Source: Monarcha castaneiventris obscurior
Taxonomy: Eukaryota > Chordata > Aves > Passeriformes > Monarchidae
Assembly (NCBI GenBank): GCA_026261815.1
Contig: JAMPIT010000885.1
Span: 62,001 to 126,000, forward strand
DNA length: 64,000 nucleotides
Direction: 5' to 3'
Of this stretch, positions 3,241 to 34,911 are shown one piece after another. The notes below the pieces were generated by a model. The model was not told where the DNA came from. It made no database searches and worked only from the letters and a program-made list of their open reading frames with translations. Positions within the stretch are counted from its first letter, which is position 1. Each line of letters begins with the position of its first letter. Both the position numbers and the translations under genes were made by a program.

Positions 3241-3626
3241 CTGGTTTTCCAGTTCCTCTCTCTTGATCTCATTCAAGACAAAAGGGCATGAGCCGACTCT
3301 TCAAAAGGCACCCACAAAACACAGCACACGAATGCCACAAAATGACCTCACAGAAGACATGGCACCTCTCCTGGGCTCTGGTTGTTTATTCAGCCTTCCC
3401 TGACACACATTAAACAATCAAAACCTCCCAAAGATGAACTCTCACTTTAAAGCTGCCACCAAGGACAGATGGACATGTCTTCAAGAATAGGACATGAAAC
3501 TGCCAAATTGTGGGATGGAAAACACTCCCAAACTCATGACTCACCAGACTGGGCCAGGCGAGAGCTGCTGCCTAAAAAATGCCCCAAGGTCATGTGACAA
3601 GGCTGTCCTGCCCCTCCACAACCAGC

Positions 3627-32141: not shown

Positions 32142-32147
32142 CCACAC
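32142..32147 (+). repeat. Target-site duplication, left copy
   Basis: CCACAC. With 34578-34583 it forms a 6-bp duplication flanking the retroviral insert. The empty-site sequence CACACCACACCATGG is preserved in other copies such as FK7. Confidence 0.9.
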
Positions 32148-32354
32148 TGTTGTATCGCGGCGGGTCAGTGTTGCTGCTGTTGTGGGTCGGTGTTGCTGCA
32201 CACCTCCTCAAGGGACGCCGACCAGGTGAGCCTGCACCTGAGGATCCTTCAGGATGCCGAGGCTATGGGGCTGGATCCCACTGAGGGTGGTCGCTCCCCA
32301 GGAGGGAATGCAGAACAGCAATGAAGACGCAGGAGGCAAGAGGCTTGCGGGAGG
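32148..32354 (-). repeat. Inverted U5 copy forming the left terminus
   Basis: Exact reverse complement, by eye, of 34371-34577. It starts TGTTGTATCG, the complement of the CGATACAACA end of U5. Its inner limit coincides with the expected R/U5 border, about 20 bases after the LTR AATAAA. It includes CCAG|GTGAGC at 32225/32226, a good splice-donor match. Confidence 0.93.
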
Positions 32355-32409
32355 TGTGCAGCAACACCGACCCACAACAGCAGCAACACTGACCCGCCGC
32401 GATACAACA
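32350..32409 (+). repeat. Forward copy of the last 60 bp of U5
   Basis: Identical to 34518-34577 and directly followed by AT and the primer-binding site, as in a normal 5' LTR end. It overlaps the inverted copy by GGAGG (32350-32354), the junction microhomology. Confidence 0.93.
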
Positions 32410-32411
32410 AT

Positions 32412-32429
32412 TGGCGCACCAACGTGAGG
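32412..32429 (+). other. Retroviral primer-binding site
   Basis: TGGCGCACCAACGTGAGG, two bases after the U5 end. It resembles the lysine (Lys1,2) primer-binding site used by betaretroviruses, apart from one inserted base and one substitution. The tRNA assignment is tentative. Confidence 0.65.
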
Positions 32430-33613
32430 CTTGAGATCTACACCCTGTGTTCGTCAGTGTTGCTAGTCCCTGCGCGTTAGCACGCTTGGTTTTACAAGCG
32501 GTGCTCCCGGGGCCGGATCCCTGTCGTCTCATCAAGAAGTCAAAGAGCCCCCGAGCCGCTCGGTGGTGGCCAACATCGAGCGTACTCGAGCTCCTGGAGA
32601 GAGACCTGAGGATCCTGGTCGGAGGAGGACTCAGTGCTTCTTTTTGTTCTTATTCCTCTCGTGGACCCGGAAAAAGGGTAAGAAAAAAGACGCCCCCTCC
32701 CTCGTTTTCTCTTAAGTTGTACATTTTGAAGCACTGAGGCAGGTGTTTTGTAGAATAGGCAACAGCCTATCTGCAGAACAGCGGGAGTTTTTTATTTCTC
32801 CAAGTTTTAGATTCCCCTTTTAATAAAAAGCTAGAATTTGTTTTTGTTGTATATCTTTTAAGTTAGAGCCCAAGACTACTTGGACGCATTTTGTTTGTAA
32901 TATCTGAGTTATACACAGTATTTAGTTTGTGCAGTGTGACGTCTTTTCTTTTCAACTTTTGAGTAAGACCCCAGTTCACCCTTCCCCATTGCCCGTCCCC
33001 CGTCTCTCCCATTCCCCCAGCCTTGCCAGAAGGAACGCTGCGGGTGTAAAAAGCCAAAGTGCCCAGGGCTGCCACCTGCTCCCTGACACTCCCGGCGCTT
33101 CTCCTTGCCCCGCTCGGGGGGGACCGGCCAGCCCTCTCCGAGCACCCCTAAGAAATCTTCCCTCAAACCCGCTTCCCCAGTTTGCACTCCCAAAGTTAAT
33201 TCCCCTAAAAACAGTGGGAGAGTTTCCCTGTGTGCTCCTTCTCCAGCTGAATCCCTAGTTAATCCCCCGACTTTTGTTTTTTAAAATGGAGAGGAGAGCC
33301 TGCCCCAGCCACAAAATGGCTGCGGCAGAAGCTCTCCCTCACAGCCCCCTTCTTCTCCCCGCAATTCCCCTTTTCCCGCCTTTCCAACCTCCCGCTTTCC
33401 CGCCTTGAACAGTCTGCTACACCCCTAGAAGTGATCCTGTTTCGTCCTACCCCCCCGATCCTACCTCTACTTCTACTACCCCTAATCCCTCTTCCCTTTA
33501 AAAGTCTTTCAGGTTCCCCTTTCCCTCCTCATCCCTTCTCCCCTCCAAAGTCAATTAATTTTGGTACGGTCACCTGTTTATGTTTATTTTTGAGTTCCCA
33601 ATGAATCGCTTGA
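32430..33613 (+). other. ERV leader and noncoding remnant
   Basis: About 1.2 kb between the primer-binding site and env. AAAAAGG|GTAAGAAA at 32678 resembles a retroviral major splice donor. No gag- or pol-like reading frame of meaningful length was seen. A 39-codon frame starts at 33286 (MERRACP) and is not recognised. Confidence 0.5.
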
Positions 33614-33960
33614 GGCTGTCTGTGCTGCTTCAATTTGTCCAGTAAATCCCAAAGCATCCACGCATCAATCAACCAGATGAAGGCACTGATCAATGACATC
33701 AGGTCAGAGTCACGAGAATGGATGCAGCAGGCACAGAACAGGACTGTCCACCAACTCTCCCACTCCATTGGAGAGGTTGCAAAGGTCTCAAGAAGCTGGC
33801 TAAAGCAGTTCCTGAAAAGGCTCGGACTCTCAGAATAGAGAACATCCCTATTGCGTGACATTGGACTTGTCGTTTTGTTTTTACTTATCATAATTGTCTG
33901 TTTTGTTGTTCCGGAGAAGGTTTTAATCAATCACATTCTCCATCAAATTAATAAAGACGA
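33614..33960 (+). pseudogene. ERV env fragment (transmembrane subunit, C-terminal part)
   Basis: An open stretch to 33835 encodes a helical, charged and amphipathic segment like the end of a transmembrane-subunit ectodomain, with one NRT glycosylation sequon. An in-frame TAG at 33836-33838 interrupts it. The same frame then continues with a strongly hydrophobic 15-17-residue anchor and a short basic tail, up to the purine tract. The upstream part (surface subunit, fusion region) is missing. It is non-functional: truncated 5' and carrying a stop before the anchor. Identification rests on position directly upstream of the 3' LTR and on the anchor, not on a named match. Confidence 0.6.
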
Positions 33961-33968
33961 GGGAGGTG
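33954..33968 (+). other. Polypurine tract
   Basis: Purine-rich AAAGACGAGGGAGG immediately before the LTR start TGTGGAGG, the expected plus-strand primer position. Confidence 0.65.
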
Positions 33969-34577
33969 TGGAGGGGCAGGCTCCAAATGTGGCAGCTGTC
34001 TGTCACTCCGACACCGCCTCCGACTCCGCCTCTGGGGATGGAGACTCCTCCTGGGAGGAGGACTCCATGGGCTGCACCACCGTGCAAACCCAGCCCAGGT
34101 TCCAGAAGATTCCCCAGAGTGCGTCGAGTGATTGGTCCCCAGTTGATTGATTTGTGTGTACCACCCCCTTGTAAAATTTTGATTTGCCCTCGGACCCTGT
34201 ACCCTCCTACCCTCTGATGCCCTATTGGTTTGTTATCCGGCGCCCCTCCCATATCTGTACCCCTTAAAACGTCGTGCACCCCCGTCTCCGACGGGGATTT
34301 CTCCTCCGTCGGCTCTCCCTCCCGGATCCCTCAGCCCACCCCTCAATAAAGGAGACCTTGAGGAGACCCCCCTCCCGCAAGCCTCTTGCCTCCTGCGTCT
34401 TCATTGCTGTTCTGCATTCCCTCCTGGGGAGCGACCACCCTCAGTGGGATCCAGCCCCATAGCCTCGGCATCCTGAAGGATCCTCAGGTGCAGGCTCACC
34501 TGGTCGGCGTCCCTTGAGGAGGTGTGCAGCAACACCGACCCACAACAGCAGCAACACTGACCCGCCGCGATACAACA
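33969..34577 (+). repeat. 3' LTR of the ERV (609 bp)
   Basis: Starts TGT after the purine tract and ends ACA at the target duplication. U3 is about 33969-34290, with a TTAAAA at about 34264 as possible TATA equivalent. R contains AATAAA at 34345. U5 is about 34371-34577. No ATG occurs between about 34270 and the FK11 start at 34585. Confidence 0.8.
34345..34350 (+). terminator. LTR polyadenylation signal
   Basis: AATAAA in CCCCTCAATAAAGGAGACC. In a transcript started at the FK11 TATA box it would lie upstream of the keratin coding sequence and could end the RNA early. Confidence 0.75.
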
Positions 34578-34583
34578 CCACAC
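34578..34583 (+). repeat. Target-site duplication, right copy
   Basis: CCACAC, directly followed by CATGG of the FK11 start. Confidence 0.9.
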
Positions 34584-34584
34584 C

Positions 34585-34911
34585 ATGGCCTGCTACGATC
34601 TCTGCCGACCCTGCGGACCCACCCCGCTGGCCAACAGCTGCAACGAGCCCTGTGTCCGACAGTGCCAGGACTCCCACGTTGTCATCAACCCTTCCCCGGT
34701 GCTCGTCACCATGCCAGGACCCATCATGACCTCCTTCCCCCAGAACACCGCCGTCGGATCCACCTCCTCGGCTGCTGTCGGCAGTGAACTCAGTGCCCAG
34801 GGACAGCCCATCTCTGGGGGATTTGGCTTCGGCCTTGGCTATGGCCTGGGCTATGGCTACGGGCTGGGAGGCCTGGGCTGCTATGGCAGAAGGGGCGGCT
34901 ACATCTGCTAA
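34585..34911 (+). CDS. FK11 feather beta-keratin, leader split by ERV
   Basis: 108 residues, intact. Head MACYDLC/CVRQ, but the following block is DSHVV, the mark of the MACCRPC class, and the core reads LVTMPG, a combination unique here. End RRGGYIC. The promoter, exon 1, intron and acceptor (32128-32129) are 2.4 kb away because the ERV sits between acceptor and ATG, leaving only CCACACC as native leader. AATAAA at 35056. Expression from its own promoter would have to pass an LTR poly(A) signal and upstream ATGs; the LTR could drive it directly. Confidence 0.93.

What the first reader, a model, noticed from the sequence alone, without database searches (positions are those of the whole stretch)
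32148..32430. Provirus whose left end is an inverted U5: fossil of self-primed minus-strand strong-stop DNA
Seen: the element lies between perfect 6-bp target duplications, yet its left end is not an LTR. It is a 207-bp exact reverse complement of U5 (matching 34371-34577), joined at GGAGG (32350-32354) to the last 60 bp of U5 plus the primer-binding site. Both outer ends are therefore U5 att ends. Known: reverse transcription starts at the tRNA and first copies U5 then R into minus-strand strong-stop DNA; self-priming of this DNA is a known in vitro side reaction. Inference: a strong-stop strand that ended near the R/U5 border folded back, its 3' GGAGG paired with the internal CCTCC (complement of 34518-34522), and extension copied U5 and then the tRNA. 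That product could replace plus-strand strong-stop DNA in the second strand transfer, and integrase then used two U5 ends. The inverted copy stops where U5 should begin and the microhomology is exactly in place, both as the model predicts.
Basis: partly seen in the sequence, partly recalled or inferred. Interest (0 to 1): 0.88.

Follow-up and report, generated by a model that had tools for sequence, protein, structure and literature searches.

The report
Provirus with a self-primed, folded-back end
A retrovirus-like insertion just in front of a feather-keratin gene carries, where its left repeat should be, an exact upside-down copy of its own right end, likely because the first DNA strand made during reverse transcription folded back and primed its own second strand; a second insertion of the same family elsewhere in the genome has the same design with different break points.

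Summary
Window 32148-32354 is a 207/207 reverse complement of U5 (34371-34577). It overlaps by GGAGG the last 60 bp of U5, which run into the primer-binding site. The element sits between CCACAC repeats; 3 of 15 other keratin genes show the matching empty site. The parent family has ordinary 611-bp LTRs.

A genome search found a second case, L028: a 117-nt inverted U5, a different 5-bp overlap (AGGCT), then U5 and PBS, with CATGGG on both sides and a 3' truncation. Of nine copies with PBS and leader, two are folded back; 0 of 70 other Lys-PBS sites examined are.

Best reading: minus-strand strong-stop DNA primed itself at a microhomology, copied U5 and tRNA, replaced plus-strand strong-stop DNA, and integrase used a U5 end on the left. 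A minority U5 allele shared by inverted copy and 3' U5 fits one virion. Folding predicts the L028 hairpin (P=0.92) but not the window one (P=0.0001).

The side reaction is described in vitro; my paper searches listed no integrated product. New variant of a known kind.

The parts
32142..32147 (.). left target-site duplication CCACAC
   Evidence: keratin paralogues as empty-site proxy (3 of 15)
32148..32354 (-). inverted U5 (reverse complement of 34371-34577), starting with the U5 terminus TGTTGTATCG directly at the host junction
   Evidence: 207/207; the AT that stands between U5 and PBS in the family is absent at this host junction
32350..32354 (+). GGAGG, shared by the inverted and direct copies: turn-around microhomology
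32350..32409 (+). last 60 bp of U5 in normal orientation
   Evidence: 60/60 with 34518-34577
32410..32429 (+). AT spacer and primer-binding site TGGCGCACCAACGTGAGG (tRNA-Lys-like; tRNA assignment recalled)
   Evidence: variant form in 7 of 9 leader-bearing copies (L033 with one more change), canonical form in L016 and L020
32430..33966 (+). internal region of a short, apparently non-autonomous copy: 32410-33309 is 93.5% alike to the 8.4-kb relative, 33621-33966 is 72.8% alike to its 3' part; in three internal frames tested no Pfam match reached its cut-off (one weak transposase-type match below cut-off)
33967..34577 (+). ordinary 3' LTR (611 bp; U3 starts TGTGGAGG, U5 ends GATACAACA; AATAAA at 34345-34350)
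34371..34577 (+). U5 stretch that is repeated inverted at the left end
34578..34583 (.). right target-site duplication CCACAC
34585..34911 (+). feather keratin gene (108 aa); 7 bp lie between the provirus end and its start codon
   Evidence: Pfam PF02422 Keratin

Best explanation
The element is a provirus whose left end is a U5 fold-back joined to the host at the U5 terminus, and it likely arose when minus-strand strong-stop DNA primed its own copying and then stood in for plus-strand strong-stop DNA. Shown in the sequence: host 6-bp repeat, U5 terminus inverted, turn at GGAGG, U5 tail, PBS, internal region, ordinary 3' LTR, host 6-bp repeat; and a second locus (L028) with the same left-hand order and other break points. 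Inferred, in order: (1) tRNA-primed minus DNA that had reached 34371 (window) or 34461 (L028) annealed by its last 5 nt to a complementary pentamer in strong-stop DNA, either its own or that of the co-packaged genome; (2) reverse transcriptase extended it, copying U5 and then the tRNA 3' end into a PBS; (3) that PBS paired with the 3' end of a full-length minus strand made from the other RNA, as plus-strand strong-stop DNA normally would, and both strands were completed; (4) integrase trimmed the two terminal bases of the left U5 end and joined it. At the window locus both outer ends are U5 ends. At L028 the left end is a U5 end and the right, truncated end was probably joined by host repair at a 6-bp microhomology (ACTTCT).
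For: Exact arms and 5-bp overlaps at two loci (P of overlap >=5 is 0.0088 each). Left host junction at the exact U5 terminus without the 2-nt AT that separates U5 from the PBS, at both loci, as integrase end-trimming predicts. 6-bp repeats: CCACAC with empty-site-like paralogues, 3 of 15; CATGGG at L028. The direct arm runs into the PBS in both. Neither left end holds LTR sequence from before 34371. Of the 9 leader-bearing copies, 7 have a normal 5' LTR, its U3 start TGTGGAGG in 5 of 7. The minority allele T34425 (C in 23 of 27 other U5 matches covering it) is in both the inverted copy and the 3' U5. The L028 strong-stop strand is predicted to fold with its 3' end on the observed partner, P=0.92, rank 2 of 183. 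Self-priming of strong-stop DNA, reduced by nucleocapsid, is stated in the opening text of PMC4668388 (passages read).
Against: For the window locus the observed pairing is not favoured in a naked fold (P=0.0001, rank 129 of 183; with the middle kept unpaired, four trials gave 0.156, 0.003, 0.000 and 0.000). The PBS of both fold-backs is the family variant, not canonical tRNA-Lys, so a tRNA-copied PBS is not visible directly. The allele test is soft: one of the T copies (L009) has C in its own 3' LTR (L010), so this site can differ within one provirus. No empty allele, raw reads or other bird genome was available. L028 lacks a U5 right end.
Confidence: 0.84

Rival explanations
1. Late template switch: normal plus-strand strong-stop DNA was made and transferred, but the minus strand, while copying its U5, jumped at the pentamer onto a leftover strong-stop strand and copied that to its U5 end; host repair then sealed the other strand.
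For: Gives the same final sequence, including microhomology and U5 end. Would explain why the window pairing is not the preferred hairpin. PMC9278108 proposes another inter-strand transfer for asymmetric HIV LTRs (passages read).
Against: Needs a flap removal and a ligation that self-priming does not need; the L028 hairpin is predicted from its own sequence.
Confidence: 0.11
2. Rearrangement of an ordinary provirus after integration (inverted duplication or gene conversion inside the chromosome).
For: The window lies in a tandem keratin array with recent duplications.
Against: Would leave the U3 terminus beside the left target repeat; instead the U5 terminus sits exactly there at two unrelated loci.
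Confidence: 0.02
3. Assembly or library artefact (hairpin or chimeric read).
For: The assembly seems to contain faults in this family: two LTR copies read as if all G and T were dropped.
Against: A read-through palindrome would also invert host flank; here the inversion stops at the U5 terminus and 6-bp host repeats follow. Two loci with different turns agree; 0 of 70 other Lys-PBS sites examined and 0 of 7 normal copies show it.
Confidence: 0.02
4. Autointegration or nested integration of a second copy in opposite orientation.
For: Also produces inverted viral segments (recalled).
Against: The inner junctions lie inside U5, with a 5-bp overlap and no U5 or U3 terminus and no 6-bp repeat.
Confidence: 0.01

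Closest known systems
Self-priming of minus-strand strong-stop DNA in HIV-1 reverse transcription (Guo et al. 1997, seen only as cited in PMC4668388 and PMC10986323)
   Same: Strong-stop DNA primes its own extension; described as a source of aberrant DNA that nucleocapsid reduces
   Different: There it depends on the TAR hairpin of R; here it starts at or inside U5, and the product was completed and integrated into a genome that was passed on
HIV-1 proviruses with asymmetric LTRs (PMC9278108, passages read)
   Same: Unequal proviral ends ascribed to strand-transfer errors, using the two packaged RNAs
   Different: There 24 of 26 have an intact 5' and a partly deleted 3' LTR and 2 of 26 a short deletion in the 5' LTR; a figure legend also mentions proviral inversions, whose place I did not see; none of the passages read describes an inverted U5 end
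Aberrant integrations with one integrase-joined and one host-joined end (PMC5041404, passages read)
   Same: Fits L028: U5 end on the left, truncated end joined by host repair
   Different: Host duplications there are usually far larger; L028 has 6 bp, plus a 6-bp microhomology
The element's own family in this genome (611-bp LTR; short copies of about 2.8 kb and one 8.4-kb copy with RT and integrase domains)
   Same: LTR, PBS, leader, 6-bp target repeats
   Different: 7 of 9 leader-bearing copies have an ordinary 5' LTR

Membership tests
LTR retrovirus-like element (endogenous retrovirus family) | LTRs with TG...CA ends and a tRNA PBS next to U5 | tested here: met
   (family); PBS present at 32412-32429
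LTR retrovirus-like element (endogenous retrovirus family) | short fixed target duplication | tested here: met
   CCACAC. Of the 7 normal proviruses, 3 have a perfect 6-bp repeat at canonical ends (L033/L011, L018/L019, L016/L015) and 4 have a base or a few irregular at an end (L009/L010, L012/L013, L020/L029, L022/L030); solo LTRs such as L014, L021, L023 have perfect 6-bp repeats, L027 and L031 5 of 6
LTR retrovirus-like element (endogenous retrovirus family) | reverse transcriptase and integrase in a long relative | tested here: met
   RVT_1 E 2.4e-37, rve 3e-23 in two separate pieces of L041; none detected in the three window frames tested
Betaretrovirus-like (class II) lineage | place in an RT tree | not tested
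   Lys-type PBS and 6-bp repeat only suggest it (recalled)
Ordinary provirus | two direct LTRs, U3 at the left end | tested here: not met
Self-primed strong-stop product | begins at the exact tRNA-proximal end of U5 | tested here: met
   after loss of the terminal AT, both loci
Self-primed strong-stop product | microhomology at the turn | tested here: met
   GGAGG, AGGCT; P(>=5)=0.0088 each
Self-primed strong-stop product | copies U5 and continues into the PBS | tested here: met
Self-primed strong-stop product | PBS copied from the tRNA itself | tested here: inconclusive
   both fold-backs carry the family variant PBS; a search for a matching tRNA gene did not complete
Self-primed strong-stop product | 3' end can pair with its partner in the free strand | tested here: inconclusive
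   yes for L028 (P=0.92), no for the window (P=0.0001)
Autointegration product | viral terminus at the inner joint | tested here: not met

The most novel reading that the evidence does not exclude
Self-primed strong-stop DNA is not only a test-tube side product but a working alternative start for the plus strand: it bypasses the polypurine-tract primer, builds proviruses with a folded-back U5 left end, and integrase accepts them with two U5 ends (window) or with one end finished by the host (L028), often enough to make up 2 of 9 surviving leader-bearing proviruses in one family.
Probability: 0.6. Interest if true: 0.85.

Novelty: new variant of a known kind. Interest (0 to 1): 0.74.

Why it matters
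Self-priming is described as an aberrant side reaction that nucleocapsid reduces. Two integrated copies with the predicted joint would show that its product can finish reverse transcription and integrate in a living animal. That gives a fixed sequence signature (inverted U5, microhomology, U5-PBS) that can be counted in any genome or proviral data set, making the in vivo rate of self-priming measurable. It also points to integration with two U5 ends. Such copies lack paired LTRs, so they would not readily collapse to solo LTRs and may persist longer than normal ones (inference).

Tried and rejected
Autointegration and nested insertion (inner joints are not viral termini). Post-integration inversion (left host junction is a U5 terminus). 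Assembly palindrome (flanks not inverted, two loci). The idea that the inverted copy must end at the R/U5 border: dropped, because L028 ends 90 nt inside U5. Folding of the free strand as proof of the hairpin: works for L028, fails for the window. Enrichment in this family: 2 of 9 against 0 of 70 gives Fisher P=0.012, but leaving out the window copy that prompted the search it is 1 of 8 against 0 of 70, P=0.10, so no enrichment is claimed. A search for a host tRNA gene matching the variant PBS did not complete. Of 102 canonical Lys-PBS sites outside this family (104 minus L016 and L020) I examined 70; by their U5-end letters these are mostly one other family; older, mutated fold-backs could be missed. 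L042/L043 (relatives about 83% alike in the LTR) gave no leader match and no second LTR in the 10 kb fetched. Paper searches; no title or abstract start listed there describes an integrated inverted-U5 product. I opened passages of PMC4668388, PMC10986323, PMC9278108, PMC5041404 and PMC13185573 and the abstract of PMC5651808, none of the other listed papers; the library lacks most subscription journals.

Full report
WHAT IS THERE. Reading 5' to 3': CCACAC | TGTTGTATCG... (32148-32354, exact reverse complement of 34371-34577) turning at GGAGG into the last 60 bp of U5 (32350-32409), then AT and the primer-binding site (32410-32429), an internal region, an ordinary 3' LTR (33967-34577) and CCACAC. 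The insertion ends 7 bp before the ATG of a feather keratin gene (Pfam Keratin). The window has 16 such frames of 101-110 aa by start motif (only this one was scanned with Pfam). Of the 15 others, three (19591, 22757, 29080) read CTCCACACCACACCATGG, which is the window flank pair with a single CCACAC, a proxy for the empty site; the rest differ there by a base or more.

THE PARENT FAMILY IS ORDINARY. The window's assembly is held (1.077 Gb, 688 contigs). The 207-bp U5 query has 36 matches; the post-PBS leader has 9. Seven of the nine leader-bearing copies have a full 5' LTR before the PBS, beginning with U3 (TGTGGAGG in 5 of 7; altered in L009 and L022). Six of these are short (U5 start-to-start 2166-2184 bp in the places, so about 2.8 kb in all); one is about 8.4 kb with identical LTRs (0 of 611 differences) and RT and integrase domains in the pieces scanned. 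So the fold-back is not the family's normal end.

A SECOND, INDEPENDENT CASE. The other two leader-bearing copies are the window element and L028 (G000:C378:10159000-10166000). In L028, 3404-3520 is the reverse complement of window 34461-34577 (117 nt), and 3516-3601 is U5 34492-34577 (86 nt). They share AGGCT, are followed by AT and the PBS, and the arms are 86/86 complementary with 26 nt between them. The host reads ACTTCTCATGGG directly before TGTTG. The element runs 98.4% alike to the window copy up to 33474, where its own ACTTCT is followed by CATGGG and host DNA. So the left joint has a U5 terminus and a 6-bp host repeat, and the right joint is a truncation at a 6-bp microhomology. The different turn points and host sites argue that neither copy derives from the other.

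WHY REVERSE TRANSCRIPTION AND NOT A LATER EVENT. Both left ends start exactly where minus-strand strong-stop DNA would start once the terminal AT is trimmed: the family has CAACA-AT-TGG at the U5-PBS border, while the host joins are CCACAC|TGTTG and CATGGG|TGTTG. A later chromosomal inversion would not place a trimmed viral terminus at the host repeat. The inner turns are 5-bp overlaps; for random junctions in this sequence 5 bp or more occurs with P=0.0088. The window's U5 has a T at 34425 where 23 of 27 other U5 matches covering the site have C; the 4 with T are L009 and L014/L017/L024, the last three with the same flanks, so two insertions. The inverted copy has the T too, so both ends fit the same or sibling RNA. 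This is soft support: L009's own 3' LTR (L010) has C.

MECHANISM. Inferred: strong-stop DNA annealed by its 3' pentamer to strong-stop DNA and was extended through U5 into the tRNA; [quoted passage not shown] integrase used the new U5 end. Folding with DNA parameters gives mixed support. L028's 117-nt strand is predicted to pair its 3' end exactly as observed (P=0.92; rank 2 of 183 junctions with 4 bp or more), while the window's 207-nt strand is not (P=0.0001; rank 129). For the window locus I therefore leave open whether the partner was its own strand or the sister strand. The point where the inverted copy ends (34371) lies 21 nt after AATAAA; whether it is the R/U5 border cannot be told here, and L028 shows it need not be.

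HOW COMMON. A tolerant test (120-nt U5 tail against up to 1.4 kb upstream, minus strand) on 79 PBS sites, 9 of this family and 70 of 102 other canonical Lys-PBS sites, flags only these two. Two of nine is notable but biased, since normal copies can turn into solo LTRs and the window copy prompted the search.

KNOWN AND NEW. PMC4668388 (passages) says that self-priming of strong-stop DNA gives heterogeneous products and is reduced by nucleocapsid. PMC9278108 (passages) ascribes asymmetric HIV LTRs to strand-transfer errors. PMC5041404 (passages) says that one end can be joined by integrase and the other by host enzymes. PMC5651808 (abstract) suggests that second-strand transfer can be within or between molecules. 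My searches listed no title or abstract start on an integrated fold-back U5. The parts are known; the completed, integrated product, seen twice in one assembly, is what I take to be new.

Noticed in passing
L039 (G000:C439:16165106-16167112) and L040 (G000:C674:6668993-6670999): Part of the LTR (69 and 166 bases) reads as the family LTR with every G and T removed (similarity 0.98 and 0.96 to a G/T-stripped LTR; for L040, 0.24-0.29 with four other base pairs stripped and 0 with A/C stripped). Looks like a base-dropout fault of the assembly.
   Followed up: partly
window 37767, 40949, 44131: Three keratin-like genes exactly 3182 bp apart with identical upstream 60-mers: very recent tandem duplication.
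   Followed up: no
window 34371-34585: The 3' LTR ends 7 bp before the keratin start codon, so an LTR-started transcript could include the keratin frame; if the gene has the usual 5' exon (recalled), it is now 2.4 kb further away.
   Followed up: no
window 32412-32429; L016, L020: 7 of 9 leader-bearing copies, both fold-backs included, carry a PBS variant with an extra A and a G-to-A change against the canonical tRNA-Lys form found in L016 and L020; no matching tRNA could be looked up.
   Followed up: partly
L034 (G000:C45:24996922-24998928): LTR with a partial tandem duplication of its U3 part.
   Followed up: no
L014, L017, L024 (contigs C299, C241, C337): LTR insertion with the same near flanks on three small contigs, LTRs differing by 2-9 bases: possibly duplicated or unplaced haplotypes.
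   Followed up: no
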